Of a DNA stretch of 64,000 bases, positions 295 through 63,384 are shown piece by piece. Below the pieces are notes generated by a model. That model saw only the letters and a list, made by a program, of their open reading frames with translations, was not told the origin of the DNA and ran no database searches. A program made the translations under genes and the position numbers. Position 1 is the first letter of the stretch. Each line of letters starts with the position of its first letter. Where the stretch lies: positions 1 through 64,000 of the forward strand of contig NZ_CANMDS010000006.1 in the NCBI RefSeq assembly GCF_947496725.1, written 5' to 3'. The DNA comes from an uncultured Dokdonia sp. GTDB taxonomy: Bacteria; Bacteroidota; Bacteroidia; Flavobacteriales; Flavobacteriaceae.

Positions 295-1512
295 TTAAAT
301 TATTTCTGCTACGACAAAGGTGCTTCCGCCTATAAAAATAAGATCGCTGGTTCCCGCAACCTTTTTTGCGGCCTTAAATGCCTCTTTTACACTAGGATAT
401 GCTTTACCCTTAAGTCCTAAGCCTTCTGCTTCTTTTTTTAAGTGTTGTACCTCCATTCCTCTTGGCACGGCAGGTTTACAAAAGTAATAAGAGGCATATC
501 CCGGAAATAATGGTAAAATGCTCTCTAAATCCTTATCTGAAACTACGCCAAGTACAATATGTAAATTCTTATAACGCTCCTTACCTAATTGATTCATCAC
601 ATAAGTGAGCCCTTCCTTATTGTGCCCGGTATCGCAAATCACCTTTGGCTCTTCTTGCAATATTTGCCACCTTCCCTGGAGGCCCGTATTTTTTACCACA
701 TTCTTTAATCCCTTTGCAATATGCTGGATCCCTACGTGAAAACTCGCTCCTTGCAAAACAGAAAACGCTACTTGAACTGTACGTATGTTGTTTTTTTGAT
801 AATCTCCCACTAGGTCAGATTGCATAGGCATTAAGTCAAAATCATACGCTTTGTGAAGGGGTGCATTACGCTTTCGCGAAAGCGCACTAAAGACCTCCTC
901 TGTCTCTTCATTAAACTCACCTATTACAACAGGGACATTCTCTTTAATAATACCTCCTTTCTCTGCGGCTATAAGCGGGATGGTATCACCCAAAAACTGC
1001 GTGTGATCCATACCAATATTTGTTATAACCGAAAGTACGGGTGTAATAATATTTGTGGCATCAAGCCTACCTCCTAAGCCTACCTCTATGATCGCAACAT
1101 CCACTTCTTTTGTTGCAAAATATGAGAAGGCCATCCCTACAGTCATTTCAAAAAATGATAGTTGATGCTCTTCAAAAAAGGCTTTGTGCTTTTTTACAAA
1201 CCCCATTACAAACTGCTTGCTACAAAGCTCACCGTTTATTTTTATGCGCTCTCTAAAGTCTTTAAGATGTGGTGAGGTATATAGCCCCACTTTATAACCT
1301 GCTTCTTGTAAAACAGATGCCATCATATGACTAGTAGATCCTTTACCGTTTGTGCCTGCTACGTGAACGGTTTTAAATGTGGTATGAGGATTACCTAGAT
1401 GTGCTGCTAGAAGATTTATGTTACTTAGGTCTGCCTTGTATGCAGCAGCTCCCTTACGTTGATACATAGGTAGCTGGTTAAAAAGCCAGTCTAAGGTTTC
1501 TTGATATGTCAT
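295..1512 (-). CDS. folC: Bifunctional folylpolyglutamate synthase / dihydrofolate synthase
   Basis: This cytoplasmic Mur-ligase-family enzyme adds glutamate to dihydropteroate or folate with ATP. The 405 residues are full length. The ATP-binding loop HVAGTNGKGST is at residues 50-60, the FolC signature EVGLGGRLDATN is near 143-154, the magnesium-site segment NIGMDHTQFLGDT is near 165-177, and CDTGHNKEG marks the C-terminal domain. It lies 28 bp downstream of the TonB-like gene on the same strand, so co-transcription is likely. Residues 211-215 (LSRKR) are encoded by a copy of the 16-bp palindrome, placed between the central and C-terminal domains. Confidence 0.95.
   Translation of the reverse strand: MTYQETLDWLFNQLPMYQRKGAAAYKADLSNINLLAAHLGNPHTTFKTVHVAGTNGKGSTSHMMASVLQEAGYKVGLYTSPHLKDFRERIKINGELCSKQFVMGFVKKHKAFFEEHQLSFFEMTVGMAFSYFATKEVDVAIIEVGLGGRLDATNIITPVLSVITNIGMDHTQFLGDTIPLIAAEKGGIIKENVPVVIGEFNEETEEVFSALSRKRNAPLHKAYDFDLMPMQSDLVGDYQKNNIRTVQVAFSVLQGASFHVGIQHIAKGLKNVVKNTGLQGRWQILQEEPKVICDTGHNKEGLTYVMNQLGKERYKNLHIVLGVVSDKDLESILPLFPGYASYYFCKPAVPRGMEVQHLKKEAEGLGLKGKAYPSVKEAFKAAKKVAGTSDLIFIGGSTFVVAEII
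869..884. repeat. 16-bp palindrome copy 1 (in folC)
   Basis: Exact CGCTTTCGCGAAAGCG. In the folC frame it encodes LSRKR, probably in a loop of the protein. Confidence 0.95.
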
Positions 1513-1540
1513 TGTGATATAAAGATAGGTGTTACAACGA

Positions 1541-2374
1541 TTAGTCTGAGAGACTAAAGCGGTATACTATTTTTCCTATTTGTTTTGAAGGCGCTTTTGA
1601 GTCGGCATTAAATTTTGTGGCAAGTGCTGCTGCTTTTGCCGGCTCTAAGAGACAGCGTGTGTTATTTGTAGTGCCTCGCACTCCTGGCGTAGCTTTTATA
1701 ACTTTACCGGTACGGTCTACCTCAATACTCACTACAACTACTCCTGACTCATTACACTCTTGCTGGCGTTTTGGTTTTCCTAGTGCTTTACGACCTCCTA
1801 GCTGGTAGTTACCATCACCATCTAGACCTCTTCCGGTACCATAATAACTAGATGCGTTAGGGTCTCCATTAGGATCCCCCTTATCTCCAGCTTGGTTATC
1901 ATTACCTTCACCTCCTTGAGCTACACCATCCTTTTTAGGACCATTAATAAGCGCGTCTAGTGCACTTGTTGTAGACTTATCTGGTTTAGGATCTGGCTTT
2001 GCTTCTTCTACTGGTTTTTCTACCGGCTTTTCTTTTGGTTTCTCAACCTTAGGCTTTGGAGTTTCCTTTGGTTTTTTTTCTATAACCGGAGCATCTTCTG
2101 TGTCTTGCGTGACAACCTCATCCTTAATCTCTGGTTCTGGTGGAGTGGGCTCTGGTTGTGGTGCTGTATTTTTTGGTGCAGATGCCACAGGTTTTGTAGG
2201 CTGTACATTACCAGAACCTACACTAGAGGTTCCAAAGTTTACGGCTATACCCCCTTCTTCTGGCGGGTCCATATAGTTCATACCCACCATAAACATAAGC
2301 AATAATATAATCGCCATAATAATACTACTTATGGTGAAAGATTTGCGTTTATGTATGGTATCTAGGTATGCCAA
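1541..2374 (-). CDS. TonB-like energy transducer
   Basis: This inner-membrane protein probably transmits ExbB/ExbD motion to outer-membrane receptors. It has a short cytoplasmic stretch with HKRKS, one membrane segment (IIMAIILLLMFMVGM), a long Pro/Glu/Lys-rich periplasmic spacer, a Gly/Asp-rich linker, and a C-terminal domain with SIEVDRTGKVIKA typical of TonB C-terminal folds. There is no in-frame ATG. A TTG at 2372-2374 gives MAYLDTIHKRKS, which matches the family's usual start; an earlier TTG at 2420-2422 would place the palindrome inside the N-terminus. The first is preferred. It follows exbD and precedes folC in one minus-strand run. Confidence 0.82.
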   Translation of the reverse strand: MAYLDTIHKRKSFTISSIIMAIILLLMFMVGMNYMDPPEEGGIAVNFGTSSVGSGNVQPTKPVASAPKNTAPQPEPTPPEPEIKDEVVTQDTEDAPVIEKKPKETPKPKVEKPKEKPVEKPVEEAKPDPKPDKSTTSALDALINGPKKDGVAQGGEGNDNQAGDKGDPNGDPNASSYYGTGRGLDGDGNYQLGGRKALGKPKRQQECNESGVVVVSIEVDRTGKVIKATPGVRGTTNNTRCLLEPAKAAALATKFNADSKAPSKQIGKIVYRFSLSD

Positions 2375-2400
2375 GGTATATTTATTTAAGAGTGTAATTA

Positions 2401-2416
2401 CGCTTTCGCGAAAGCG
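2401..2416. repeat. 16-bp palindrome copy 2 (exbD / TonB-like junction)
   Basis: Exact copy with T on the right flank (GCGTA). It lies between the exbD stop and the likely TTG start of the TonB-like gene. If translation starts at 2422 it encodes RFRES at residues 3-7. Confidence 0.95.
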
Positions 2417-6342: not shown

Positions 6343-7449
6343 TTAAGAATCATATAACATTCCGCTAGAGTGGTCTTGTGATGCTCCTGTGACACTTGCA
6401 AGGCAATTAGGAAGCCCTTCAAGCCTTAAAATCCCTAATAAACCAAAAACGAGAGCCTCTTTAAATTCAATAAGTTGCGCATCTGGCACTACAAGATTTA
6501 ACACAGCTCCCTTGACCTTATTTGCTTTATACTGAGCTTGCACACGGGATAACAAATAGCTATTGTAAGCTCCTCCTCCGGTGACTAAAACTGAGGTGTT
6601 TTCTTTAAACTGAGTCGCAATTTGCACAGCAATATGCTCTGTAAACGTCGCCAGCACATCTATATCAGAGATTTTATAAGATTCAATTATTGGGAATACT
6701 TGTTCGTGCACCCACTCTATCCCCAGAGATTTTGGAGCTGGAGAGCCATAATATGGTAAGCTATTCAGTTCCTTTAATAAGGGAGCGTGTACGGTTCCCG
6801 CTTTCGCGAAAGCGCCCCCATCATCATACGGCTTACCCAACTTATCAGCATATTTATTGAGCACAACATTAACTGGACAAATATCATACGCCAGCCGAAC
6901 TCCATTTTCCTCAGTCGAAACATTTGCAAATCCACCAAGATTGAGACAATAATCATATGTACCAAACAACAGCTTATCTCCTATAGGAACAAGCGGTGCG
7001 CCTTGCCCACCTAGCGCTACATCTTGCACCCTGAAGTCGCAAACCACTTTATGACTAAGCAACTGAGCAAGTTCCGGAAGATTACCTATCTGTAAAGTAA
7101 AACCATCTTGTGGCTGGTGTAATATAGTATGGCCGTGAGAACATATCGCATCAATATCCTTTATATGATGCTGGGCTATAAAGGCGTTTATAACTTGAGC
7201 TAAATACTGGGTGTATGATTTATTTATAGCTGTTAACTCGTCTATAGACAGTATATGTGCAGTACGAAGCTTACTCTCCCACAAGTCTGTATAGGCAATT
7301 GTTTCTGCATTAATTATCTGAGCATCAAAAACCGGATAGGCTTCTCCAGATATTTGCGGTGACATACTAATTTTAATAAGCGCACAGTCTATTCCATCTA
7401 AGCTGGTACCGCTCATCACACCTATAACGTTATAGTTTTTTTGTTCCAT
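6343..7449 (-). CDS. anmK: Anhydro-N-acetylmuramic acid kinase
   Basis: AnmK phosphorylates 1,6-anhydro-MurNAc with ring opening during peptidoglycan recycling. It has 368 residues from the ATG at 7449; the frame continues one codon to a GTG. GVMSGTSLDGID near residues 10-21 is the ATP-binding signature, CSHGHTI and GGFANVS are family motifs, and VTGGGAYN is the second phosphate loop. It is divergent from the acyl-CoA dehydrogenase gene, 84 bp apart. A palindrome copy encodes AFAKA in the segment GGAFAKAGTVH. Confidence 0.94.
   Translation of the reverse strand: MEQKNYNVIGVMSGTSLDGIDCALIKISMSPQISGEAYPVFDAQIINAETIAYTDLWESKLRTAHILSIDELTAINKSYTQYLAQVINAFIAQHHIKDIDAICSHGHTILHQPQDGFTLQIGNLPELAQLLSHKVVCDFRVQDVALGGQGAPLVPIGDKLLFGTYDYCLNLGGFANVSTEENGVRLAYDICPVNVVLNKYADKLGKPYDDGGAFAKAGTVHAPLLKELNSLPYYGSPAPKSLGIEWVHEQVFPIIESYKISDIDVLATFTEHIAVQIATQFKENTSVLVTGGGAYNSYLLSRVQAQYKANKVKGAVLNLVVPDAQLIEFKEALVFGLLGILRLEGLPNCLASVTGASQDHSSGMLYDS
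6799..6814. repeat. 16-bp palindrome copy 3 (in anmK)
   Basis: Exact copy, flanked by C and C rather than the usual A and T. It encodes AFAKA on the minus strand, in a region of AnmK between conserved motifs. Confidence 0.95.
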
Positions 7450-7462
7450 CACCCTAAATCTA

Positions 7463-9559: not shown

Positions 9560-10660
9560 CTAATTTTTCACATCTAGTGCATCCCTTAGAGCATTACCTA
9601 CAAGCATAAACGCCATTACAAGTAACATTATCGCAATACCAGGGATGATGGCAAGATACGGCTTCCCGAGGATGATATAACTATAGTGATCTTTAATCAT
9701 AGCTCCCCAGCTGGGTGTAGGTGGTTGTGCTCCTATACCTAAAAAACTCAATCCGCTTTCTATAAGGATAGCTCCTGCAAAGTTTGCTGCCGAAATCACT
9801 ATAAGCGGCGCTATAACATTAGGTAAAATATGCTTTACTATGATACGCCCATCTGTATACCCTAGTGCTCTTGCCGCTGTAACATATTGCATTTGTTTTA
9901 CTCCCATCACCTGTCCTCGCACAACACGAGCCACCTCAACCCACATTGTAAGCCCTACTGCGATAAAAACTTGCCAGTACCCCTTACCTAGCGCAAGTGT
10001 AATTGCAATAACAAGAAGCAAGGTTGGGATAGACCAAGTCACATTAATAATCCACATAATAGCGGCATCTACTTTTCCGCCAAAATAACCTGCTAGCGAC
10101 CCCATAAAGAGGCCTATAATAAGTGATATAAAAACTGCTACAAATCCTATAGAAAAAGATATTCTCGCACCTATGAGCATCCTACTCAAAAGATCTCGAC
10201 CGTACTTATCTGTCCCTAGTATAAATGTACGTGGTGATATGTACGCTTTCGCGAAAGCGTTATAATCTTCAACCCCATTTACAGTAACTTTTTTTGGTAA
10301 ACCCACCACTCCGTCACTCATATACGGGGTATATGTGATACCATCGTTCTCTAAATTGTAATCTGCTATAGGTATTTCTGTGTCTGAATTATAACTACCC
10401 GAAAACCATCTAGAAATAAATGATTGCTCTACCTTTAAATCACTTGGAATTGTGAGGATATCTACCGTAAAGCCGGGTGATTGTGAGTGGATAGAGAGGT
10501 GCATCTGGTTTGCATTCTCACTACTATCTGGAGCGATTACATAAGCAAATAAAGCAGCTAGGCCGCATAGTACAATGTACACCAAACTCAAAACGCCCCA
10601 AAAATTTCTTTTAAATTTTTGGAGCGCTAGGCTTGTTAATGAGTTTGCTCTTTGCGACAT
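9560..10660 (-). CDS. OppC/DppC-like ABC transporter permease
   Basis: This 366-residue inner-membrane permease has one N-terminal membrane segment (LVYIVLCGLAALFAYVIA), a periplasmic domain of about 90 residues, then five hydrophobic segments. The EAA loop for the ATPase, ARALGYTDGRIIVKHILPN, is intact, and the C-terminal GAQPPTPSWGAMI is typical of the OppC branch. No partner permease, ATPase or binding protein is adjacent, so it is an orphan here. A palindrome copy encodes AFAKA in the periplasmic part, just before TFILGTDKYGRDL. Confidence 0.92.
   Translation of the reverse strand: MSQRANSLTSLALQKFKRNFWGVLSLVYIVLCGLAALFAYVIAPDSSENANQMHLSIHSQSPGFTVDILTIPSDLKVEQSFISRWFSGSYNSDTEIPIADYNLENDGITYTPYMSDGVVGLPKKVTVNGVEDYNAFAKAYISPRTFILGTDKYGRDLLSRMLIGARISFSIGFVAVFISLIIGLFMGSLAGYFGGKVDAAIMWIINVTWSIPTLLLVIAITLALGKGYWQVFIAVGLTMWVEVARVVRGQVMGVKQMQYVTAARALGYTDGRIIVKHILPNVIAPLIVISAANFAGAILIESGLSFLGIGAQPPTPSWGAMIKDHYSYIILGKPYLAIIPGIAIMLLVMAFMLVGNALRDALDVKN
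10244..10259. repeat. 16-bp palindrome copy 4 (in the OppC-like gene)
   Basis: Exact, in full ACGC...GCGT form. It encodes AFAKA in the periplasmic loop of the permease. Confidence 0.95.
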
Positions 10661-13741: not shown

Positions 13742-13757
13742 CGCTTTCGCGAAAGCG
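13742..13757. repeat. 16-bp palindrome copy 5 (after surE)
   Basis: Exact copy starting 6 bp after the surE stop. There is no T-run, so it is not a standard terminator. Confidence 0.95.
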
Positions 13758-13774: not shown

Positions 13775-13790
13775 ACTTTTCGCGAAAGCG
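13775..13790. repeat. Decayed palindrome copy
   Basis: ACTTTTCGCGAAAGCG keeps the core and right arm but has three changes in the left arm. It lies 18 bp after the intact copy and ends 8 bp before the start codon at 13799. Confidence 0.7.
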
Positions 13791-15776: not shown

Positions 15777-17801
15777 GTGAGAAAATTAAATATTCCTATT
15801 TTAACGCTACTCATATCTATCACCATAGGTATAGTATTGTATGACTACCTTAAGACCCCAGCTATTACAGTCTGGGTTTGCTCAATACTCTTATCTCTTA
15901 CTGGAGTCTTACTTAATACATATAGCAGTAAAAAAATCATAGGCTCAGCACTCTTTATGTGCTGTACTTCTGCAATATTTATCACCATAGGTTATCTATC
16001 TAGAACTTATACTGATGATACCCTCTCACAGAATCATTATACACATACTAACACAGAGGGTTCACACACGCTACTTGTCAAAATAAATAGGGAATTAAAA
16101 CCTACGTTGTATCAACATAAGTACCTAGTAGAACTCAAAGGAATAGATAGCACTATTACTACTGGTAAATTACTTCTCAACATTTATAAAGACTCTGCAA
16201 CCATATTACCCAAAACTGGAGAATGGTGGTATGCAAGAACTGCTCTGTTGCCTGTACCCCATCCCAAAAATCCGTATCAGTTTGATTATGGTGCTTATCT
16301 CAATAAGCAACAAATATACAGACAGGTTTCTGCAAAGCCTCAAGAAATGTTGCGCGCTAGTATGGATACGTATGATATGGGTGTGTGGGCGTCACGCTTT
16401 CGCGAAAGCGTAAAAAAGTCCCTTCACCACCAATCTTTTACACCAAGACAACTTGCAGTCATTAAAGCGCTCGTACTAGGCCAAAGACAGGGTATAGATA
16501 AAGAGATGAGTTCTCAGTATGCCGCAGCAGGTATGATGCACATACTCGCCGTGTCTGGACTGCACGTAGGTGTAATTTTACTTATACTAAGATTCTTATT
16601 TGGTTTTATAAAATGGCGGCAACTGCAATGGGTAAAATCACTACTCATTATCTCACTCATCTGGAGCTTTGCCATTATTACTGGCTTATCACCATCTGTG
16701 CTAAGAGCTGCAACTATGTTTAGCTTTCTTGAGGTAGGTGAGCTTCTGGGCGGAAAAAGAAAGTCGCAAGATGCTGTGCTAGCTTCTGCTATATTCTTAC
16801 TTCTACTCGACCCGCTGCTTATCTACCAGGTGGGGTTTCAGCTCAGTTATCAAGCTGTGATAGCGATTTTATGGGTGCAACCTTGGCTAGCCAGTTTCTG
16901 GTCTCCAGAGGTGTTTATATTAAGAAAACTACGGGACGTGGTATCTGTAACTATTGCAGCACAACTAGGTGTTATGCCACTTAGCCTCTTTTACTTTCAT
17001 CAGTTTCCTGGGTTATTTATTATTTCTAATGTTTTAATTATTCCGTTTTTAGGTCTCATACTAGGCGGTGGCTTGCTTGTGTGTTTTCTGAGCGTCACAG
17101 ACCTTCTACCAGAGTTTATAGCACAAACTTATGGAGGTATTATAGATGTAATGAATAATTATATAGCTTGGGTGGCAGGACAAGAAGATTTTGTGGCTAG
17201 ACATATAAGTGTGTCTGCAACACTTATGATACTCGTTTATATGTTTATGATTACTACACTCCTTTTGTGTATGAAATATTCAAAACGCAGACTTATTGTT
17301 GCTAGCCTAGCAACCATAATTTTGACAGGTTTTATCGTGTTAGAAATTAATCAACCTGCTTCTCAACACCTGGCAATACTTAATAGAAGCGCTTCAACAA
17401 CACTTACTCAACTACAAGAAAAGCAACTTACGGTGTTTAATAATGACTCCCTATATCTCACCCACACAGATAGTAGAGTAAAGGCATATCAAGATGCTCT
17501 CAAAATAGATACCGTTGTGCAGAAGTCTCACGGAAATTATTTTCGCTTTAAGCGAAAAGAAATACTTATTGTAGATAGTTTGAGCATATACAATCTTGAA
17601 GAGGCAAATCCAGATTATGTGATACTCACGCACTCGCCAAAAGTTAATATGAATAGACTCATCGAGCGATACCCTAACTGTACAATTATTGCAGACGGGT
17701 CTAATTATCACAGTTATGTATCCCGATGGAAAGCGACTTGTACAAAACAAAAAATCCCTTTCCATAGCACGTATGAAAAGGGAGCTTTTATAATAGATTG
17801 A
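15777..17801 (+). CDS. comEC: ComEC/Rec2 DNA-uptake channel protein
   Basis: This 674-residue polytopic membrane protein is the inner-membrane channel for single-stranded DNA in natural transformation. The start is GTG. Hydrophobic segments lie at the N-terminus, then a soluble OB-like region, then the competence domain with ILAVSGLHVGVILLI and a run of membrane helices. The C-terminal soluble part is short and lacks an obvious full metallo-beta-lactamase domain, as is common in Bacteroidota. A palindrome copy encodes RFRES just before the competence domain, and a second-type palindrome lies near 17540. Confidence 0.92.
   Translation: MRKLNIPILTLLISITIGIVLYDYLKTPAITVWVCSILLSLTGVLLNTYSSKKIIGSALFMCCTSAIFITIGYLSRTYTDDTLSQNHYTHTNTEGSHTLLVKINRELKPTLYQHKYLVELKGIDSTITTGKLLLNIYKDSATILPKTGEWWYARTALLPVPHPKNPYQFDYGAYLNKQQIYRQVSAKPQEMLRASMDTYDMGVWASRFRESVKKSLHHQSFTPRQLAVIKALVLGQRQGIDKEMSSQYAAAGMMHILAVSGLHVGVILLILRFLFGFIKWRQLQWVKSLLIISLIWSFAIITGLSPSVLRAATMFSFLEVGELLGGKRKSQDAVLASAIFLLLLDPLLIYQVGFQLSYQAVIAILWVQPWLASFWSPEVFILRKLRDVVSVTIAAQLGVMPLSLFYFHQFPGLFIISNVLIIPFLGLILGGGLLVCFLSVTDLLPEFIAQTYGGIIDVMNNYIAWVAGQEDFVARHISVSATLMILVYMFMITTLLLCMKYSKRRLIVASLATIILTGFIVLEINQPASQHLAILNRSASTTLTQLQEKQLTVFNNDSLYLTHTDSRVKAYQDALKIDTVVQKSHGNYFRFKRKEILIVDSLSIYNLEEANPDYVILTHSPKVNMNRLIERYPNCTIIADGSNYHSYVSRWKATCTKQKIPFHSTYEKGAFIID
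16393..16408. repeat. 16-bp palindrome copy 6 (in comEC)
   Basis: Exact copy encoding RFRES (residues about 206-210), between the soluble region and the membrane competence domain. Confidence 0.95.
17540..17558. repeat. Second-type palindrome TTTTCGCTT-T-AAGCGAAAA
   Basis: A perfect 9-bp inverted repeat around a single T. Its 17-bp core, TTTCGCTT(T/A)AAGCGAAA, recurs at 49998-50014. It uses the same TTTCGC/GCGAAA half-sites as the main palindrome but spaced by 5 bp. It lies inside comEC, encoding FRFKRKE. Confidence 0.65.
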
Positions 17802-20087: not shown

Positions 20088-22277
20088 CTAAAGTTTTTCT
20101 TTGATAAAATCTGTCATCATTGTAAATAGGTGTAAACGTGTGTTACCTCCGTAAATACCGTGATTTTTATCTGGATAGTTAAAGTAATCAAACTGCTTGT
20201 TTGCCTGTACTAGTGATTCTACAAGGCGCGTTGCGTTTTGCACGTGCACATTATCATCTGCACTACCGTGCACTAGTAAAAAGTCTCCCTCTAGCTTACT
20301 CACGTGACTCATAGGTGAGTTATTATCATAACCACTTGCGTTTTCTTGTGGGGTTTGCATATAACGCTCTGTGTATATAGTGTCATAAAATCTCCACGAT
20401 GTTACCGGTGCAACAGCTATAGCCATCTCAAAGGTATCTGCTCCTTGAAAAAGACAATTTGAAGCCATAAAACCTCCATAACTCCATCCCCAGATACCTG
20501 TACGATCTTCATCTATGTAAGCACGCTTGCTCAACTCTTTTGCTGCAGCAATCTGGTCTTGTACTTCGTACTTACCTAGCTCTTTTTGAGTTACTTTTTT
20601 AAAGTCACGCCCTTTTAATCCGGTCCCTCTTGGGTCTACACAAACTACAATGTAGTCGTTTTGTGCTAGCATATGAAACCAGTAATCGTTAGACGTATCC
20701 CACTTATTTGCCACACTCTGTGATCCTGGCCCAGAATATTGTGTCATAAACATAGGGTACTTCTTAGATGGATCAAAATCTGTAGGCTTAATCATATAAG
20801 CGTTAAGCGATACTCCATTTACATCTATCTCAAAAAATTCTTTTGGAGAGATATCATAACCTGCATATAAGTCTTTTAAGGCTTGGTTATCTTTTATAAC
20901 GCGTATTTGCTTTCCGTCTTTTGCGCTGTTAAGTGTGAAGCGGTATGGTGTTGTTGTATTTGAGTATGTATGTATAAAGTTGCTGAAGTTTGCGCTAAAG
21001 TCTGCACTGTTAGTTCCTTCCTTATCTGCAAGGGCTTGTTTCTTTTTACCATTAAGACCTATAGCATACACACCACGGTTAATAGAACCATTTTCTGAGC
21101 TTTGGTAAAAAATACGTTTTGTACCTGCGTCATAACCATAATAACCTGTCACTTCCCAGTTACCAGAAGTTACTTGATTTTTTAAAGACCCATCTGCATT
21201 ATGGTGATAGATGTGATTCCACCCATCTTTTTCGCTTGTCCAGATAAAGCTATTGTCATCTAGAAAAGTAAGGTTATCTGTCACATCTACATATGCTTTA
21301 TCTGTTTCTAGCACGGCAAGTGTAGTCTGGTAGGTACTCGCATTAAAAAGCGAAAGCTTTAAGGTATCTTGATGACGATTAAGTGTTTGTACAGAAAGTA
21401 CATTAGGGTCTTTTGACCAAGAGATGCGTGGTATGTAGTACCCAGCGTTATCACCTAGATTAACTTCTACATCTTTTGCTTTACGACTATTACCCGTATC
21501 TAGGTTATGCAAGCGTAGGCTCACTTTTGCGTTAGGCTCTCCAGCTTTTGGGTATTTAAAGACAGTCTGTGTCTGGTATAATTTATTACCATATACATCC
21601 ATAGAGAATTCTGGAACTTCACTCTCATCAAAACGTATGTAAGCAATTTTCTTACTATCTGCACTCCAGTCAAAGGCGCGCACAAAGCCAAATTCTTCTT
21701 CATACACCCAGTCTGTAATTCCATTTATAATGCTGTTCTTCTTTCCGTCTGTAGTGAGCTGTTGTGTTGCTCCAGAGGCAATATCAAAAACAAAGAGGTT
21801 ATTATCCTTTCCATAAGCGATTTTCTTTCCGTCTGGTGAAAATGTTGGCTCTTGAATAAGATCGTCAGATACTTTAGTCAGCTTTCGCGAAAGCGTATTC
21901 CACACATAATATTCACCCAGCGTAGATCTTCTAAAGATAGATTGCAATTTTGTAGAGAGTAGCACCTGCTGCTCATCATCACTAAACTCATAACTTATAA
22001 AGTAATCAAGCCCGTCTATATCTGCACTACTTACAGCCGTACGTACTTTCTTGCCCGTATCATAGCTGTAAATATCTACACTACCTGTGCGGGTTGCTCT
22101 ATCAAAGTTTTGTACAGCATACTCTTGACCATTTGCCATAGAGTGTATAGACTGTAGTCGCTCTGCTCTAAAAGTGCCATTTTTCCAAATATCTTCAAGG
22201 CTTATTTGTTTTTTTTGCGCAGTTGCGCTCTGGATTGCAAGAAGAAATACAGCAATCAAAAAGGTATGTAATCTCAT
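20088..22277 (-). CDS. S9 family prolyl oligopeptidase, dipeptidyl-peptidase IV-like
   Basis: This 729-residue exported peptidase has a signal peptide (MRLHTFLIAVFLLAIQSATAQ), an N-terminal beta-propeller, and a C-terminal alpha/beta hydrolase domain with the nucleophile in GWSYGG, aspartate in HGSADDNVH and histidine in DKNHGI. The EE motif in VYEEEFGF is the N-terminus-binding signature of DPP-IV. It probably releases dipeptides for the adjacent POT transporter. A palindrome copy with one mismatch encodes LSRKL in the propeller. Confidence 0.94.
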   Translation of the reverse strand: MRLHTFLIAVFLLAIQSATAQKKQISLEDIWKNGTFRAERLQSIHSMANGQEYAVQNFDRATRTGSVDIYSYDTGKKVRTAVSSADIDGLDYFISYEFSDDEQQVLLSTKLQSIFRRSTLGEYYVWNTLSRKLTKVSDDLIQEPTFSPDGKKIAYGKDNNLFVFDIASGATQQLTTDGKKNSIINGITDWVYEEEFGFVRAFDWSADSKKIAYIRFDESEVPEFSMDVYGNKLYQTQTVFKYPKAGEPNAKVSLRLHNLDTGNSRKAKDVEVNLGDNAGYYIPRISWSKDPNVLSVQTLNRHQDTLKLSLFNASTYQTTLAVLETDKAYVDVTDNLTFLDDNSFIWTSEKDGWNHIYHHNADGSLKNQVTSGNWEVTGYYGYDAGTKRIFYQSSENGSINRGVYAIGLNGKKKQALADKEGTNSADFSANFSNFIHTYSNTTTPYRFTLNSAKDGKQIRVIKDNQALKDLYAGYDISPKEFFEIDVNGVSLNAYMIKPTDFDPSKKYPMFMTQYSGPGSQSVANKWDTSNDYWFHMLAQNDYIVVCVDPRGTGLKGRDFKKVTQKELGKYEVQDQIAAAKELSKRAYIDEDRTGIWGWSYGGFMASNCLFQGADTFEMAIAVAPVTSWRFYDTIYTERYMQTPQENASGYDNNSPMSHVSKLEGDFLLVHGSADDNVHVQNATRLVESLVQANKQFDYFNYPDKNHGIYGGNTRLHLFTMMTDFIKEKL
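21880..21895. repeat. 16-bp palindrome copy 7 (one mismatch, in DPP-IV-like gene)
   Basis: AGCTTTCGCGAAAGCG, with the first base changed from C to A. It encodes LSRKL on the minus strand, in a propeller loop. Confidence 0.88.
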
Positions 22278-22451: not shown

Positions 22452-23765
22452 ATGACAAAGGCGATATCTGGTTTTTCTAAACTATCAAAAACTGAGAAGA
22501 TTACGTGGCTTACCGCAAACTTCTTTAACAATTCTGAGGCAGCAACCCAGACTTTAACCTCATACTGGAACACAGATGCAAAGCTCCAGCAACTGCACGA
22601 TGAGTTTATAGAAAACACCATCACAAATTACTACCTACCCCTAGGAGTAGCGCCTAATTTTACCATAAACGACACCATCTACACCATCCCGATGGCTATA
22701 GAAGAAAGCTCTGTAGTTGCTGCGGCGAGTAAGGCTGGTAAATTCTGGCAAGAGAGAGGCGGTTTTAAAACCACCGTTCTAGGCACCACTAAAGTAGGAC
22801 AGGTACACTTTACTTATGATGGTGACAAGGAAGATTTACAACAGTACTTTGATAAAATCACACCAAAGCTCTATGAAGATGTAGAAGAGATTACGGTTAA
22901 TATGAAAAAACGTGGTGGCGGTATAAAAAACATCGCCCTACGAGATAAAACAGCCGCTGTAGATGACTACTACCAGCTGCACTGCACCTTTGAGACGCTA
23001 GATGCAATGGGTGCAAACTTTATAAACAGCTGTTTGGAGCAATTTGCAACCACTTTTAAAGAAGGGTTTGAGGCAGATGCCCGCTTTCGCGAAAGCGGAA
23101 ACACGTTAGATATCATTATGTCCATTTTATCTAACTATGTTCCAGACTGTCTTGTACGCGCAGAGGTAAGTTGCCCTATAGATCAACTCACCGAAAAAAA
23201 TATAGACGGCGAGACCTTTGCCAAAAAATTTGTTCAAGCAGTTACCATTGCCGAAGAAGAACCTTATCGAGCTGTTACCCACAACAAAGGAATAATGAAC
23301 GGTATAGATGCCGTAATACTTGCTACTGGAAATGACTTTAGAGCGGTGGAAGCAGGCGTGCACGCATATGCAGCAAGAGATGGGCAATATAGAAGCCTTA
23401 CGCACGCAAGTATCAAGGATGGCATTTTTACCTTCTGGATGGAGATACCACTAGCACTAGGTACCGTAGGAGGTCTCACAAAACTACACCCACTAGTAAA
23501 GTGGAGTATGGAGCTACTAGGAAACCCATCTGCAAAGGAACTTATGCAAATTGTTGCCGTCGCCGGTCTAGCTCAAAACTTTGCAGCACTTAAGTCGCTC
23601 ACCACAACTGGCATACAGCAAGGGCATATGAAAATGCACCTTATGAACATTTTAAACCAGATGAATGCGACTCCAGATGAGAAGCAACAAACGGTAAATC
23701 ATTTTAAATCAAACACCGTTACTCATAGCGCAGTTGTTACTTTTATAGACGGACTACGCTCATAA
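22452..23765 (+). CDS. Class II (degradative-type) HMG-CoA reductase
   Basis: This NAD(P)H-dependent enzyme interconverts HMG-CoA and mevalonate. The 437 residues begin with the class II-type sequence GFSKLSKTEKI. PLGVAPNFTIN and IPMAIEESSVVAAASKAGKFW form the HMG-binding region, and DAMGANFINSC is the conserved catalytic segment. In Flavobacteriia this type serves the biosynthetic mevalonate route to isoprenoids. It is followed 11 bp later by the GYDIA kinase. A palindrome copy encodes RFRES in the segment EADARFRESGN. Confidence 0.94.
   Translation: MTKAISGFSKLSKTEKITWLTANFFNNSEAATQTLTSYWNTDAKLQQLHDEFIENTITNYYLPLGVAPNFTINDTIYTIPMAIEESSVVAAASKAGKFWQERGGFKTTVLGTTKVGQVHFTYDGDKEDLQQYFDKITPKLYEDVEEITVNMKKRGGGIKNIALRDKTAAVDDYYQLHCTFETLDAMGANFINSCLEQFATTFKEGFEADARFRESGNTLDIIMSILSNYVPDCLVRAEVSCPIDQLTEKNIDGETFAKKFVQAVTIAEEEPYRAVTHNKGIMNGIDAVILATGNDFRAVEAGVHAYAARDGQYRSLTHASIKDGIFTFWMEIPLALGTVGGLTKLHPLVKWSMELLGNPSAKELMQIVAVAGLAQNFAALKSLTTTGIQQGHMKMHLMNILNQMNATPDEKQQTVNHFKSNTVTHSAVVTFIDGLRS
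23082..23097. repeat. 16-bp palindrome copy 8 (in HMG-CoA reductase gene)
   Basis: Exact copy, with C and G as flanking bases. It encodes RFRES between the conserved FINSC segment and NTLDIIMSILSNY. Confidence 0.95.
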
Positions 23766-24691: not shown

Positions 24692-24707
24692 CGCTTTCGC
24701 GAAAGCG
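24692..24707. repeat. 16-bp palindrome copy 9 (after the GHMP kinase)
   Basis: Exact, ACGC...GCGT. It starts at the base directly after the TAA stop and lies just before a true terminator. Confidence 0.95.
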
Positions 24708-32488: not shown

Positions 32489-33265
32489 CTAATAACCTGT
32501 TACAAAACAAACTTCAAGCATTTTGTATAACTCCGGATGTTTACGTTTAAATAGATCTGGACGCTCAAAAAAGTACTCTGCCGCCACCGCAAAAAACTCT
32601 ATTTTACTTGTACCACCATATTTTCTTATGTCTGAGGTATCATTATTTATAGCCTCCATCTCTGTATGCATCATATCTAGCCAGGGCACAATATTTTCTT
32701 TACCTAGTAACTGTTCTGGTATACCATCTACCTCACCATCCATCTTATCAAGTAAATGCACAAACTCGTGTATCGCTGTATTTCCTTTATCTGTCTTATT
32801 ATTAAACCCAAAATGAAGTGCCTTGCGAGAGAGTATCATATGGTTTTCAAACTGTCCCGTCCCTACCATACCTCCTATGATACGATCTTCACCCTCTGAG
32901 TGATACTCGAGATTTGCATTAAAGTAATCTGGATAAATAAGTACCGTATCTAAGTTATTGTAATGCCAGTCTCCAAAGTTAAAAATAGGGATAACCGCAC
33001 TAGCTGCCACAAACACCTTATCCTTATCAGACAGGTCAAATCCCACAGCCTCTACATTTACTTCGGTGAGAAAGGCCATCATTCTTTTTTTAAAGAATTC
33101 CTTCTTTTTAGGAGTGAGCTCTTTGTAAAAAAGCACTTCATCACTTAATAAAGACTCCCAAGTAGATGGGAAAGGATCTGGTGTACGCTTTCGCGAAAGC
33201 GTAAAAAGCCCGTAACCCATAAAAACAAATAAGGCTAATCCAGCCAAAAGGAATAGTATAATCAT
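32489..33265 (-). CDS. mtfA: MtfA-like zinc-dependent peptidase
   Basis: This 258-residue protein has an N-terminal membrane anchor (ILFLLAGLALFVFMGYGLF) and the zinc motif HEFVHLLDKMDGEVDG, an HExxH with downstream glutamate region, as in MtfA, the peptidase that acts on the Mlc regulator in enterobacteria. The target in this organism is unknown. A palindrome copy encodes LSRKR right after the membrane anchor. Confidence 0.88.
   Translation of the reverse strand: MIILFLLAGLALFVFMGYGLFTLSRKRTPDPFPSTWESLLSDEVLFYKELTPKKKEFFKKRMMAFLTEVNVEAVGFDLSDKDKVFVAASAVIPIFNFGDWHYNNLDTVLIYPDYFNANLEYHSEGEDRIIGGMVGTGQFENHMILSRKALHFGFNNKTDKGNTAIHEFVHLLDKMDGEVDGIPEQLLGKENIVPWLDMMHTEMEAINNDTSDIRKYGGTSKIEFFAVAAEYFFERPDLFKRKHPELYKMLEVCFVTGY
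33186..33201. repeat. 16-bp palindrome copy 10 (in mtfA)
   Basis: Exact, in ACGC...GCGT form. It encodes LSRKR at the cytoplasmic boundary of the membrane anchor, where a basic stretch is tolerated. Confidence 0.95.
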
Positions 33266-34051: not shown

Positions 34052-34067
34052 CGCTTTCGCGAAAGCG
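34052..34067. repeat. 16-bp palindrome copy 11 (between peroxidase-like gene and arsS)
   Basis: Exact, ACGC...GCGT. It starts 6 bp after the stop codon. Confidence 0.95.
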
Positions 34068-35272: not shown

Positions 35273-35878
35273 GTGGCTTTATTTAAAGAGCTCAATAGGC
35301 AAACTATCGCTACGGTACGCAAGACGGGAATTCCCTATGTTATTTTTTCTGAAAATGAGCAGGTAGGAAACACCTTTGGCGAGCGTTTCACAAATGCACT
35401 TACCTCGGTTTTTGACAGTGGTTATGACCAAGTTATAACCATAGGTAATGACACTCCGCACCTTTCGGCGGGGCATATTCTTTTAGCACAAGAAAAGCTC
35501 AAACAGTCTGCGCTTGTTATTGGCCCAAGTACTGATGGCGGTTGCTATTTAATGGGGATTAAAAAGAAACATTTTAAGCCTGAGCAATTTAAAAATCTAC
35601 CGTGGCAGTCTAGTAAACTAGGTGCTATTATTTCTGATACGCTTTCGCGAAAGCGTACAAACCTTTACCTCCTTGAGAAGCTCTCAGATCTTGACACATT
35701 TGCAGATTTACAGCAGATGCTCAAAGAGACTTCCACATTATCAAAAAGACTATTACAACTTATACAAAACATAGTAAATCAAGGTCTTTCTCTTGGTTAT
35801 CACACTACAAACCGATTCTTTGAGTCGCTCACTAAAAGCCACTTTAACAAAGGATCACCATCATTAGTTAGTATTTAA
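35273..35878 (+). CDS. TIGR04282-type arsenosugar glycosyltransferase-like protein, start-defective
   Basis: The DUF2064/TIGR04282-like fold is recognisable by GERFTNALTSVFDSGYDQVITIGNDTP and VIGPSTDGGCYLMGI. The only legal start is a GTG at 35273, but family homology continues upstream in frame to 35189 (KITTPKTAILIFAQTATTEA), including the first nucleotide-binding strand. One missing T at the tag-aaa junction (35187-35188) would recreate ATG-AAA-ATC. The gene may therefore be truncated, use a non-canonical start, or be decaying. A palindrome encodes LSRKR. A second homologue is at 43766. Confidence 0.75.
   Translation: MALFKELNRQTIATVRKTGIPYVIFSENEQVGNTFGERFTNALTSVFDSGYDQVITIGNDTPHLSAGHILLAQEKLKQSALVIGPSTDGGCYLMGIKKKHFKPEQFKNLPWQSSKLGAIISDTLSRKRTNLYLLEKLSDLDTFADLQQMLKETSTLSKRLLQLIQNIVNQGLSLGYHTTNRFFESLTKSHFNKGSPSLVSI
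35640..35655. repeat. 16-bp palindrome copy 12 (in TIGR04282-type gene)
   Basis: Exact, ACGC...GCGT. It encodes LSRKR after the conserved DGGCYLMGI region, a site absent from the second homologue at 43766. Confidence 0.95.
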
Positions 35879-39160: not shown

Positions 39161-39176
39161 CGCTTTCGCGAAAGCG
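39161..39176. repeat. 16-bp palindrome copy 13 (between susC and susD)
   Basis: Exact. It begins at the base directly after the susC stop and fills half of the 34-bp gap to susD. Confidence 0.95.
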
Positions 39177-42906: not shown

Positions 42907-43395
42907 ATCAAAAAAATCATATACATACTCATCTTTCTCATAAGCGCTATAAGTGTTGGGCAATCAGATATGGACTTGTTATTAAAACAGTACAACACAC
43001 GCTCTGTTCCTTATATTTCTGTGCAAGAACTCAAGATGGAAATGAGTGACTACTTAATTTTAGACACTCGTAAAAAGGAAGAGTTTGAGGTAAGCCATAT
43101 CCCTGGAGCGGTGTGGGTTTCTGAGAAGGTGAATGATAGTATGTACGCTTTCGCGAAAGCAAAAAAAGATCAACCCATCGTCGTTTATTGCTCCGTAGGG
43201 ATACGCTCTGAAGATTTTGGCGAGCGATTGAAGAAGAAAGGATTTACAAACGTCAAAAATCTATACGGAAGCATATTTGCGTGGAAAGATGAAGGCTACG
43301 AAATTCAAAACAAGAACAAACAACCAACCGACTCTGTTCACGTATTTTCCAAAGTTTGGGGGAAATATTTAAAAACAGGACATAAAGTTTACTAG
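42907..43395 (+). CDS. Exported rhodanese-like protein with a non-ATG start
   Basis: From ATG 42970 the protein has 141 residues: a single rhodanese domain with the active loop CSVGIRS. In frame upstream is a clear signal peptide (KKIIYILIFLISAISVGQS) beginning after ATC at 42907, with no ATG, GTG or TTG between the previous gene's stop and 42970. One base change (ATG to ATC) explains this. Export or cytoplasmic location therefore depends on AUC/AUU initiation. A palindrome with one mismatch encodes AFAKA. It may carry sulfur for thioarsenicals; this is inference. Confidence 0.8.
   Translation: MKKIIYILIFLISAISVGQSDMDLLLKQYNTRSVPYISVQELKMEMSDYLILDTRKKEEFEVSHIPGAVWVSEKVNDSMYAFAKAKKDQPIVVYCSVGIRSEDFGERLKKKGFTNVKNLYGSIFAWKDEGYEIQNKNKQPTDSVHVFSKVWGKYLKTGHKVY
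43146..43161. repeat. 16-bp palindrome copy 14 (one mismatch, in rhodanese gene)
   Basis: CGCTTTCGCGAAAGCA, last base changed. It encodes AFAKA between the domain halves (SMYAFAKAKKDQP). Confidence 0.88.
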
Positions 43396-45218: not shown

Positions 45219-45234
45219 CGCTTTCGCGAAAGCG
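45219..45234. repeat. 16-bp palindrome copy 15 (after the phosphorylase)
   Basis: Exact. It lies 5 bp after the stop codon in the gap to arsM. Confidence 0.95.
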
Positions 45235-45295
45235 AAATCTAAACCAAAAGATATCATCATTACATACAAACTACTATCTATTTAAACAACGAGTT

Positions 45296-46264: not shown

Positions 46265-46315
46265 GCTACTGTTAGTTTTTTATAATACATACGACTCTAT
46301 ACGTATGAGTCACAC

Positions 46316-51972: not shown

Positions 51973-51988
51973 CGCTTTCGCGAAAGCG
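51973..51988. repeat. 16-bp palindrome copy 16 (intergenic)
   Basis: Exact, ACGC...GCGT, between the PagL-like gene and the YqaE-like gene. It is upstream of the former, so it is not a post-stop copy for that gene. Confidence 0.95.
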
Positions 51989-54969: not shown

Positions 54970-55983
54970 TTAATTTCTACCGTAGTATTCTTTTACAATA
55001 TCTTGAGCTGGTTTGTTTTGAGGTGTAAACTGGCTATTTTCTGGTCCTCCTACACGGTCGTGATGTATAAACCATTTCCATAAAAAGCCTCCTGCCATCC
55101 ACTCTTCATCCCAGACGGCTTCATAAAGTGCTTTTGTAACATTTACTTGCGCTTCTAGATTTACTTGAGTCATACTTCGGTCAGAGCGCCAGGGTTCTTT
55201 ACCTGTATAGTCTACAGAGCGATAGCCATACTCTGTAAATAATACTTTGCGTTGTTGCGCTTTCGCGAAAGCGGAAATCTCCTCTTTCCATTTTATCCAG
55301 CCTTCTATGGCACACGCCACAGTAGGTGTTTGATCATCACATACTGGAAAGTAAGCATCTATACCTATATAATCCAGCTCTTGCCAGAAGGGTGTTCGTT
55401 TATACTCATCCCAGTTTGCAGCATACGTAAGCTTACCTTTGTATACTTTTTTGATATCTTTTATGAGCTGTTGCCAGAAAGCTGGTCTATTTACTACAAA
55501 TTGCTCCAGCTCTGTGCCTATGCAAAATATTGCTGCATCTTCCTCTTGAGCAAGTGTGGCATAATCCATTATAAAATCGCGATACGATTGCTCAAGTGCC
55601 AGCCACTCCCCTTCTGTCTCCATCTTGAGGTAACCTGTAAACTCACCCCGACGTATCCATATCTGTGGTTTGAGCATCACATCTATACCTTTATCGTGAA
55701 GTTGTGCTACATAATTACGACCGCCTTCTCTAGTCTCACCATACCACTGTCTATCTGTATTATATACAATTTGCGCTTTATCTAGTGCCGGCACAAAACC
55801 AAAAGGCATTACGGCAGCATAGTTTGCGTTTATATCAAGAACGGGTGCCACGTGACTGCTGTCTACTGGAGAGCGATTTGCCACAAAACTTATACCGTTA
55901 ACCTTTTGCTCTGGAGCTGGCTGAGCACTACACGCTTGTAAGACCAGTATGATTATGAGAGATTGTAAAACTGTTTTTATCAT
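54970..55983 (-). CDS. GH113-like glycoside hydrolase, lipoprotein
   Basis: This protein has 337 residues from the ATG giving a lipoprotein signal (LIIILVLQACSAQ). The TIM-barrel motifs CIGTELEQF and VLFTEYGYRS carry the two putative catalytic glutamates, and LTYAANWDEYKRTPFWQ, IGIDAYFPV follow GH113 beta-mannanase relatives. Substrate is inferred only. A palindrome copy encodes AFAKA just before the second glutamate region (ISAFAKAQQRKVLF). Confidence 0.85.
   Translation of the reverse strand: MIKTVLQSLIIILVLQACSAQPAPEQKVNGISFVANRSPVDSSHVAPVLDINANYAAVMPFGFVPALDKAQIVYNTDRQWYGETREGGRNYVAQLHDKGIDVMLKPQIWIRRGEFTGYLKMETEGEWLALEQSYRDFIMDYATLAQEEDAAIFCIGTELEQFVVNRPAFWQQLIKDIKKVYKGKLTYAANWDEYKRTPFWQELDYIGIDAYFPVCDDQTPTVACAIEGWIKWKEEISAFAKAQQRKVLFTEYGYRSVDYTGKEPWRSDRSMTQVNLEAQVNVTKALYEAVWDEEWMAGGFLWKWFIHHDRVGGPENSQFTPQNKPAQDIVKEYYGRN
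55258..55273. repeat. 16-bp palindrome copy 17 (in GH113-like gene)
   Basis: Exact, with atypical flanks (G, G). It encodes AFAKA on a helix just upstream of the strand bearing the second catalytic glutamate. Confidence 0.95.
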
Positions 55984-57914: not shown

Positions 57915-58214
57915 AATTGCTGTTTTATGTGCACTTGGGTCGGGTAAAAAACAATCGTCTTACACTTTTTCTTAAAATAAATTGATTTTGATCACCAGAT
58001 AGCTTGTTGTCCTTAATGTATTTATAGCATTAATCTACAATTCATTTAGATATGTTCTAAATAAGCCTAGGTGCTGTTAAGTTTACTATCTTTAGTTCGA
58101 CACAACCCTAGTAACTTGTGAAGAAAAAAGGTTTTACATACGCTTTCGCGAAAGCGTAATCACATACCACATTACTAGAACCTCTTTTCAAATTACTTAA
58201 AAACACCAACCATT
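57915..58214. other. Intergenic region upstream of the FAD oxidoreductase
   Basis: A 300-bp divergent spacer with the palindrome at 58141. A weak -7-like TATCTTTA (58087-58094) is present, without a TTG at the right spacing. No open frame or RNA gene is seen. Confidence 0.5.
58141..58156. repeat. 16-bp palindrome copy 18 (upstream of FAD oxidoreductase gene)
   Basis: Exact, ACGC...GCGT, 58 bp before the start codon in a divergent spacer, so not a post-stop copy. Confidence 0.95.
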
Positions 58215-59555: not shown

Positions 59556-59576
59556 CCAACCTAACGACTTACACTT

Positions 59577-61208: not shown

Positions 61209-61219
61209 AATATTTTTTA

Positions 61220-61235
61220 CGCTTTCGCGAAAGCG
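61220..61235. repeat. 16-bp palindrome copy 19 (after the polyferredoxin)
   Basis: Exact, 12 bp after the stop codon and upstream of a separate, true terminator. Confidence 0.95.
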
Positions 61236-63271: not shown

Positions 63272-63297
63272 CTAAAATTTGTTGCAAAGTTTAGAGG

Positions 63298-63335
63298 CGC
63301 TTGTAAAATCTATTGTAGATTTTACAAGCGTTTTT
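63298..63335 (+). terminator. Rho-independent terminator after the PLP enzyme
   Basis: Perfect 15-bp stem CGCTTGTAAAATCTA/TAGATTTTACAAGCG with a 3-nt loop, then T5. Confidence 0.92.
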
Positions 63336-63368
63336 AAGTTATGAGCATTATAATTATCGGTCTTAGTA

Positions 63369-63384
63369 CGCTTTCGCGAAAGCG
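63369..63384. repeat. 16-bp palindrome copy 20 (intergenic)
   Basis: Exact, following a T-A flank, in the gap between the PLP enzyme terminator and the DinB-like gene. Confidence 0.95.

What the first reader, a model, noticed from the sequence alone, without database searches (positions are those of the whole stretch)
869..63384. Highly iterated 16-bp palindrome CGCTTTCGCGAAAGCG, about once per 3.2 kb
Eighteen exact and two one-mismatch copies occur, at 869, 2401, 6799, 10244, 13742, 16393, 21880, 23082, 24692, 33186, 34052, 35640, 39161, 43146, 45219, 51973, 55258, 58141, 61220 and 63369. Chance expectation for one 16-mer in 64 kb is far below one. Most are extended to ACGC...GCGT. It is GC-rich in an AT-rich genome, lacks T-runs and is not tied to one gene class. 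Candidates: a binding site for a nucleoid or chromosome-segregation protein, a DNA-uptake or recombination signal (comEC is present), or a spreading mini-element. HIP1 of cyanobacteria and parS/Noc sites are the nearest known analogues in form. I do not recall a published description for this sequence.
Basis: partly seen in the sequence, partly recalled or inferred. Interest (0 to 1): 0.88.

Follow-up and report, generated by a model that had tools for sequence, protein, structure and literature searches.

The report
Genome-wide 16-bp palindrome in Dokdonia
A marine bacterium carries about 700 nearly identical copies of a short mirror-image DNA word, spread out a few thousand letters apart and kept unchanged while the DNA around them changes, which looks like a signal for exchanging or repairing DNA and was not found in the papers searched.

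Summary
The window has 18 exact and 2 one-mismatch copies; the genome has 711 exact copies. 557 shuffled palindromes of equal composition have no copy in 864 kb that holds 183 of this one. All 18 genomes searched in its genus (that of a Dokdonia isolate), three of a second genus and one of a third are loaded; 349 of 397 family genomes have none. Sites avoid each other (8 gaps under 1 kb, 52 expected) and are kept (0 of 616 inner-core differences at 5.5% divergence). They change mainly by substitution. Each palindrome is the centre of a roughly 66-bp element: the strand running into it from either side is C-poor and G/T-rich for about 25 nt, also at third codon positions. I read it as a palindromic DNA-exchange signal working like an uptake sequence or Chi. 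Reader protein and function are not shown. Two methylase families (HIP1 type), RecBCD, an extra ParB/Noc, terminator and mini-element were tested and not met.

The parts
869..884 (.). palindrome copy, exact; inside ORF 295-1512 (Mur ligase domains)
2401..2416 (.). palindrome copy, exact; at the 5' end of ORF 1541-2422 or just before it
6799..6814 (.). palindrome copy, exact; inside AnmK ORF 6343-7452; has two substitutions in G419 and G417, which have a perfect copy 298 bp away
10244..10259 (.). palindrome copy, exact; inside ABC permease ORF 9560-10660
13742..13757 (.). palindrome copy, exact; intergenic, 6 bp after the surE ORF
21880..21895 (.). palindrome copy, one mismatch (AGC...); inside DPP IV-type peptidase ORF; the same variant stands in all five relatives aligned
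23082..23097 (.). palindrome copy, exact; inside HMG-CoA reductase, encodes RFRES in a variable stretch; present in 15 of 16 genus genomes with this locus
24692..24707 (.). palindrome copy, exact; starts at the base after the stop codon of ORF 23777-24691
33186..33201 (.). palindrome copy, exact; inside Peptidase_M90 ORF
34052..34067 (.). palindrome copy, exact; intergenic, inside the recently exchanged block
35640..35655 (.). palindrome copy, exact; inside ORF 35273-35878
39161..39176 (.). palindrome copy, exact; starts at the base after the stop codon of a TonB-receptor ORF
43146..43161 (.). palindrome copy, one mismatch (...GCA); inside ORF 42970-43395
45219..45234 (.). palindrome copy, exact; 4 bp after the stop codon of ORF 44402-45214
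51973..51988 (.). palindrome copy, exact; intergenic
55258..55273 (.). palindrome copy, exact; inside GH113 ORF
58141..58156 (.). palindrome copy, exact; intergenic; alignments of the second exchanged block start 34-46 bp to its right
61220..61235 (.). palindrome copy, exact; 11 bp after the stop codon of ORF 59577-61208; alignments of the second exchanged block to G419, G417 and G420 end inside it
63369..63384 (.). palindrome copy, exact; intergenic
15777..17801 (+). comEC (Competence domain), a protein expected for DNA uptake; it holds one site

Best explanation
The 16-mer is the core of a symmetric element of about 66 bp: [G/T-rich, C-poor, ~25 bp]-CGCTTTCGCGAAAGCG-[mirror image, ~25 bp]. 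A two-fold symmetric protein probably reads the palindrome as double-stranded DNA (inferred). I propose that the element marks own-kind DNA for exchange or recombination, working like the DNA uptake sequences of Neisseria and Haemophilus: DNA carrying it is preferentially taken up or processed, strand processing starts at the palindrome, and the G/T-rich strand that ends 3' at the palindrome on either side favours RecA loading and strand exchange. Near-perfect copies are kept and new ones fixed by biased exchange or selection, and a second copy within about 1 kb adds little, which gives the spacing. Shown here: number, conservation, spacing, permissive placement, arm composition, change mainly by substitution, patchy distribution, and a different place of the site in one gene of another genus.
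For: (a) 711 perfect against 214 singly mismatched copies although 48 singly mismatched forms exist; more perfect than singly mismatched in 5 of the 7 genomes for which I have both counts. Such an excess is named as a mark of uptake sequences and unlike regulator sites (passage of PMC1626085). (b) Spacing: CV 0.51 for the first 100 exact sites of G000 contig 1, random 0.99 +- 0.10; in the G427 sample 8 of 178 gaps under 1 kb against 52.2 in a null with the same intergenic preference, 1 under 500 bp against 31.3. (c) Conservation: inner 14 bp 0 of 616 positions differ between G000 and G427 at 5.5% divergence; against five relatives 34 of 43 aligned 16-mers outside the exchanged blocks are identical while 0-3% of neighbouring 16-mers are. 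(d) Permissive placement: 84 of 183 sites intergenic although about 9% of the DNA is non-coding; 65 of 99 coding sites use the AFAKA frame. (e) Arms: third codon positions upstream 5.6% C and 24.1% G, downstream 28.3% C and 7.0% G, far control 16.4 and 17.4 (110 coding sites); enriched words GGGT, GTGG, TGGG, TGTG; RecA prefers TGG repeats (start of the abstract of PMC3763553 in the listing). (f) Exchange between species: window 33.64-46.27 kb and 58.19-61.23 kb are about 89-97% identical to G419, G417 and G420 while the long alignments around them are about 68-80%. (g) comEC is in the window; DUF5689, a Pfam domain of a protein essential for transformation in Riemerella (PMC8459023), is found in 28 of 28 genomes searched; R. 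columbina prefers its own DNA (PMC7965970).
Against: In G424 (230 perfect, 280 singly mismatched) and G190 (153 and 224) singly mismatched copies outnumber perfect ones. The known uptake sequences are 9-10-bp cores and not palindromic (passages). Phage contigs, one of them with an integrase match, carry sites with skewed arms, which also suits a role inside the cell. Alignment breaks between species are mostly hundreds of bp or more from a site. DUF5689 is equally present in non-carriers and its tree does not group carriers; comEC is described as widespread. Conversion-tract lengths could not be measured well. Stability of 44 of 44 sites would fit ordinary purifying selection on any essential binding site as well.
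Confidence: 0.4

Rival explanations
1. Chromosome-architecture site: a dimeric nucleoid protein binds every few kb and pins, bridges or insulates the DNA; regular spacing is then a direct need.
For: Palindromic core, mutual spacing, strong conservation, presence in phage contigs, similar density in all intergenic classes, sites in 39 of 40 sampled 20-kb regions of G427.
Against: No significant origin-terminus trend (Spearman -0.24, P 0.13; 6.05 sites per region in the half nearer the assumed origin, 4.8 in the farther half); no extra ParB/Noc; the long one-sided G/T arms would need another reason; the consensus is stricter than is usual for regulator sites (passage).
Confidence: 0.23
2. Chi-like repair signal: a helicase-nuclease of the AddAB kind stops at the palindrome from either side and hands the G/T-rich 3' strand to RecA.
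For: Density about one per 4.6 kb, arms G/T-rich on the 3'-ended strand on both sides, largest gap 10.2 kb in the listed stretch, presence in phage contigs.
Against: RecC absent from 40 of 40 genomes searched, so not RecBCD; known Chi sites are short, one-directional and read as single strand (recalled); AddAB was not searched.
Confidence: 0.18
3. HIP1-type palindrome tied to an orphan DNA methylase and mismatch repair.
For: Highly iterated palindrome with deviations mostly at the outermost bases, as reported for HIP1 (PMC4390886, section 13).
Against: G000 has no match to PF00145 (C5) and none to PF01555 (N6/N4), and neither have G415, G420, G422, G424 and G242; the conserved core is 14 bp, and 216 of 222 CTTTCGCGAAAG lie in the full 14-mer. 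Dam-type and type I methylases were not searched.
Confidence: 0.05
4. Insertion mini-element (REP or MITE like) that spread by copying itself in.
For: Very uniform copies; 13 of 183 directed comparisons align with gaps; two non-carriers (L153, L154) are about 12 residues shorter where HMG-CoA reductase carries the site.
Against: Five other non-carrier rows shown have a stretch as long or longer there; most species differences are substitutions; flanks share composition, not sequence, and change at the background rate.
Confidence: 0.03
5. Transcription terminator or regulatory hairpin.
For: Many copies just after stop codons; hairpin energy -8.3 kcal/mol for the 22-mer.
Against: 99 of 183 sites lie inside ORFs; density is alike in convergent, divergent and tandem gaps (13, 18 and 49 sites in 12.5, 15.4 and 47.3 kb); arms are not complementary beyond composition.
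Confidence: 0.03

Closest known systems
DNA uptake sequences (DUS) of Neisseriaceae and uptake signal sequences (USS) of Pasteurellaceae
   Same: Hundreds of dispersed near-perfect copies, in most carriers counted more perfect than singly mismatched, permissive and intergenic preference, high conservation in variable surroundings; so described for DUS/USS in PMC2397512 and PMC1626085 (passages).
   Different: Palindromic, 14-16 bp core, mirror-image G/T arms, avoidance below 1 kb, Bacteroidota host, no uptake shown.
HIP1 (GCGATCGC) of cyanobacteria
   Same: Highly iterated palindrome in a lineage, deviations at outer bases.
   Different: Twice as long, about one per 4.6 kb instead of about one per kb, no PF00145 or PF01555 methylase in this genome, asymmetric arms.
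Chi sites with RecBCD/AddAB
   Same: Density of a few kb; G/T-rich strand ending at the site (comparison recalled).
   Different: Two-directional palindrome; no RecC; length.
parS and Noc-binding sites
   Same: Palindrome of about 16 bp with TTTC...GAAA halves (recalled consensus).
   Different: 711 dispersed copies, no ParB-family protein specific to carriers, halves one bp closer to the centre (recalled consensus).

Membership tests
DUS/USS uptake sequence | hundreds of dispersed copies, more perfect than singly mismatched | tested here: met
   G000 711 perfect, 214 singly mismatched; also G206, G010, G242, G394. Not met for the full 16-mer in G190 (153, 224) and G424 (230, 280)
DUS/USS uptake sequence | placed in permissive, more variable surroundings yet itself conserved | tested here: met
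   core 0.6% against 5.5% overall; flanks at 60-100 bp 6.8% against 5.3-5.5% at 200-400 bp
DUS/USS uptake sequence | spacing matches length of exchanged tracts | tested here: inconclusive
   mean spacing 3.1 kb (<=1 mismatch) and 3.9 kb (exact); only two exchanged blocks delimited, 12.6 and 3.0 kb; G000-G427 profile not resolved into tracts
DUS/USS uptake sequence | rare in recently acquired DNA | tested here: inconclusive
   counts rise with GC (Spearman 0.47, P 0.002) and one of 40 regions has none; but exchanged blocks and phage contigs carry sites
DUS/USS uptake sequence | raises uptake of DNA by competent cells | not testable with these tools
   needs an uptake or transformation assay
HIP1-type palindrome | highly iterated palindrome | tested here: met
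HIP1-type palindrome | methylase specific for an internal sequence in the genome | tested here: not met
   no PF00145 and no PF01555 match in G000; other methylase families not searched
Chi with RecBCD | RecBCD present | tested here: not met
   PF04257 in 0 of 40 genomes; found in the E. coli control
Chi with AddAB | AddAB present and stops at the site | not tested
   no search was made
parS/Noc | cognate ParB-family protein beyond the universal one in carriers | tested here: not met
   one PF02195 match in 14 of 15 carriers, two in G422; one to three in the 13 others
parS/Noc | clustered around the origin | tested here: not met
   sites in 39 of 40 regions of G427; Spearman with distance -0.24, P 0.13, origin taken from the skew switch near 0.70 Mb
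mini-element | copies arise by insertion | tested here: not met
   13 of 183 comparisons have gaps
intrinsic terminator | confined to gene ends, with a T-run | tested here: not met
   flanks

The most novel reading that the evidence does not exclude
A palindromic DNA-exchange signal in Bacteroidota: a symmetric element read by an unknown dimeric receptor, with built-in RecA-favoured 3' arms on both sides, acquired separately by at least two distant genera and spread through their genomes by biased exchange, with spacing set by the length of exchanged DNA.
Probability: 0.32. Interest if true: 0.9.

Novelty: new variant of a known kind. Interest (0 to 1): 0.8.

Why it matters
If it is an exchange signal, it would be a palindromic uptake or recombination sequence in Bacteroidota, where the transformation machinery of Riemerella includes proteins of unknown function and R. 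columbina prefers its own DNA without a motif having been settled. The arms would link self-recognition to RecA loading in a testable way. If it is an architectural site, its number and regular spacing would be unusual. Either way it may mark DNA that left this lineage: efflux and heavy-metal genes in other genera carry it.

Tried and rejected
Extra ParB/Noc (one match in 14 of 15 carriers, two in G422, one to three in others). RecBCD (RecC in 0 of 40). C5 and PF01555 methylases (none in G000, patchy elsewhere). DUF5689 surface protein as a horizontally shared reader: in 28 of 28 genomes, 12 carriers and 16 others, and its tree does not group the carriers. Extended hairpin: arms not complementary beyond composition. 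Mutational origin of the arms: they change at the background rate, slightly faster than neighbours against more distant species (67-73% against 72-75% identity), and G rises as well as T; I favour selection on composition, but a mutational part is not excluded. Recombination breaks at sites: most ends lie hundreds of bp or more away, some within 36-62 bp; few independent events. Other iterated palindromes in the 80 named family loci: none at the thresholds used, but the Dokdonia locus L051 itself, with 2 copies, also falls below them, so the test is weak. Known plasmids and phages by a 32-nt query: no full-length match; the 16-mer itself stands once in each of two Mycobacterium prophage records, which I take for chance. 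Literature: 16-mer in no paper; TTTCGCGAAA in 10 papers, unrelated by title and abstract start; Dokdonia with palindrome, 5 papers, nothing relevant by title and abstract start; none of the 15 listed of 6,430 papers holds 'highly iterated palindrom'. One search was a faulty script (wrong strand for about half the rows), replaced; the protein rows of loci stored on the other strand are not meaningful and were not used.

On checking I lowered the best explanation from 0.42 to 0.40 and the novel case from 0.33 to 0.32, and raised the architecture and Chi-like rivals by 0.01 each, because the excess of perfect copies fails in two of seven genomes.

Full report
Observation. The window holds 18 exact and 2 one-mismatch copies of CGCTTTCGCGAAAGCG; with up to 3 mismatches 22 matches were found where 0.07 are expected. 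One listed place is off by two (16395, not 16393). The whole genome, 3,291,590 bp in 121 contigs, has 711 exact copies and none of the reversed control word, and 925 with at most one mismatch. Of 557 distinct shuffled palindromes of the same composition none occurs in 864 kb (window plus 40 regions of the close genome G427), where the motif occurs 183 times.

Where it occurs. Of 397 family genomes searched, 349 have no copy, 42 have 1 to 13, and six have 153 to 711, in three genera. The window's genus is that of 'uncultured Dokdonia sp. isolate 1128': its locus L051 and G424 of the genus have identical HMG-CoA reductase rows, and its genome G397 has the same size and count as G424. All 18 genomes of that genus that I searched have 333 to 939 copies with at most one mismatch; three g11 genomes have 629 to 708 and one g191 genome 377. 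In a sample of 394 genomes of the phylum 11 have a match, and none besides the own genome more than 2. In an HMG-CoA reductase tree, whose deep forks are mostly weak, the g191 genome pairs (support 80) with Gilvibacter, which has no copy, and g11 stands on a long branch among other genera. In that same gene the site sits at about codon 210 in 15 of 16 Dokdonia rows and at about codon 130 in three of three g11 genomes (codons by my arithmetic), so at least there the two genera placed it independently. Low-copy genomes: I read 12 stretches of seven genomes; Pfam on six site-bearing ORFs in four of them gave RND efflux, outer-membrane efflux, a heavy-metal ATPase and a TonB receptor, and the site spacings 933, 2446 and 3460 bp recur between genera. 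This looks like imported DNA.

Placement. In 864 kb (ORFs called by a simple length rule) 99 of 183 exact sites lie inside ORFs and 84 between them, although about 91% is coding. In ORFs the AFAKA frame is used 65 times, LSRK 18 and RFRES 16. Intergenic density is alike for tandem, divergent and convergent pairs. Spacing is far from random: CV 0.51 over the first 100 exact sites of G000 contig 1, and in the G427 sample (sites with at most one mismatch) 8 of 178 gaps are under 1 kb where a null with the same intergenic preference gives 52.2 (minimum 36 in 1000 draws). Counts show no significant trend with distance from the skew switch taken as origin (Spearman -0.24, P 0.13; 6.05 per region in the nearer half, 4.8 in the farther) and rise with GC (0.47, P 0.002).

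The element is larger than 16 bp. On each side, the strand that runs 5'-to-3' into the palindrome is poor in C and rich in G and T for about 25 bases: at 5-10 bases C is 6.5% and G 28.7%, against about 19% each far away. In 137 of 187 sites both arms have more G than C, in 49 one arm, in one neither. Third codon positions show it as well: upstream C 5.6% and G 24.1%, downstream C 28.3% and G 7.0%, far 16.4 and 17.4 (110 coding sites). In intergenic exact copies the three bases next to the core are T (72%), T (87%) and A (77%) counted one by one. Arms of 14 g11 sites show the C-poverty (9.1%); the two g191 sites I read do not (C 22.7%). Sites in viral pieces with GC up to 45.5% show it more weakly (mean G minus C 2.0 per arm, 22 distinct sites; background -0.1). 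Arms are not complementary to each other beyond composition. Words such as GGGT, GTGG and TGTG are enriched, close to the TGG repeats that RecA prefers (abstract start of PMC3763553 in the listing).

Conservation and change. Between G000 and G427, 5.5% apart over 144.5 kb aligned (of about 356 kb of G000 given), 44 sites with at most one mismatch in either genome were compared: 4 of 704 core positions differ, all at an outermost base, and 0 of 616 in the inner 14 bp. The arms change at the background rate. Against five relatives 73-78% identical, with the two exchanged blocks left out, 34 of 43 aligned 16-mers are identical where 0-3% of neighbouring 16-mers are. Of 183 directed, non-independent comparisons in alignments below 88% identity, 150 keep the site with at most one mismatch, 11 have two mismatches, 9 have three to nine, and 13 align with gaps. 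In one case a site has two substitutions in G419 and G417 while a perfect one stands 298 bp away; G420 has both, the old one with one mismatch. In HMG-CoA reductase the site fills a variable stretch; five non-carrier rows shown are as long or longer there, two (L153, L154) are about 12 residues shorter. So the sites are made and lost mainly by substitution and strongly maintained.

What it is not, as far as tested. ParB family: one match in 14 of 15 carriers, two in G422, one to three in 13 others. RecC: 0 of 40 genomes. No C5 (PF00145) and no PF01555 methylase in G000, G415, G420, G422, G424 or G242. Terminators and mini-elements do not fit.

What it works like. An excess of perfect over singly mismatched copies is described as a shared mark of uptake sequences and as unlike regulator sites (PMC1626085, passages); H. 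influenzae has 1471 perfect and 764 singly mismatched (PMC1939737, passages), here 711 and 214. Five of seven genomes with both counts show the excess; G190 (153, 224) and G424 (230, 280) do not. Neisserial DUS are highly conserved, sit in permissive regions, and their spacing matches conversion tracts (PMC2397512, abstract and passages). Here conservation and permissive placement are met; the tract match is open. Riemerella, placed in Flavobacteriaceae by its authors, is naturally competent with machinery that includes proteins of unknown function, one with DUF5689 (PMC8459023, abstract and sections 19-20), and R. columbina prefers its own DNA with no motif settled (PMC7965970, passages and section 16). 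DUF5689 proteins occur in 28 of 28 genomes searched, 12 carriers and 16 others, and their tree does not group carriers. The window has comEC. Species exchange DNA: 33.64-46.27 kb and 58.19-61.23 kb are about 89-97% identical to G419, G417 and G420 against about 68-80% in the long alignments around them; G415 shares the first block at about 90% but has 77% in the second.

Against this reading. Phage contigs carry sites: of three checked with ten ORFs, one has an integrase and tape-measure match, one major head, portal and tape-measure matches, one a baseplate match; of 14 contigs tallied (25 of 41 stretches) the rate is one per 6.0 to 39.8 kb, 9 of 14 within 6 to 10.2 kb. Regular spacing and conservation would equally suit an architectural protein or an AddAB-type Chi. 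I give the exchange-signal reading 0.40, architecture 0.23 and Chi-like 0.18.

Literature. The 16-mer was not found in any open-licence PMC paper; Dokdonia with palindrome, highly iterated palindromes with Bacteroidetes terms (15 listed) and the 10-mer core gave nothing on it, judged by titles and abstract starts. HIP1 was compared through PMC4390886 (abstract, sections 3 and 13, first part of section 18). Subscription papers are not covered.

Noticed in passing
window 33643-46267: A 12.6-kb block (radical SAM DUF3641, SusC/SusD-type receptor pair, methyltransferase and others) is about 90-96% identical to other Dokdonia species while its surroundings are about 68-80%; a tRNA gene lies just left of it at 33387-33459, as for many islands.
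   Followed up: partly
window 58190-61232: A second highly similar block (pyridine nucleotide oxidoreductase and 4Fe-4S protein genes) whose right alignment end falls inside the palindrome copy at 61220 for three relatives and whose left end lies 34-46 bp right of the copy at 58141.
   Followed up: partly
L031-L042: RND efflux, outer-membrane efflux and heavy-metal ATPase genes in other Flavobacteriaceae genera hold the palindrome at conserved positions (spacings 933, 2446, 3460 bp), a likely trace of transfer from a carrier lineage.
   Followed up: partly
L165, L168, L171, L177, L178, L181, L190 and related viral contigs: Phage contigs carry several palindromes with flanks shared between contigs and skewed arms.
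   Followed up: partly
L238 (G427:C1:2852001-2872000): A 20-kb stretch without any copy, GC 35%, no tRNA; may be a recent island.
   Followed up: no
window 13775-13790: A three-mismatch copy ACTTTTCGCGAAAGCG starts 33 bp after the perfect copy at 13742; possibly a decayed or nascent site.
   Followed up: no
L093: 12-mers around ATTTTTTCCTCC occur six times in 12 kb of an Eudoraea contig; may be an unrelated local repeat.
   Followed up: no
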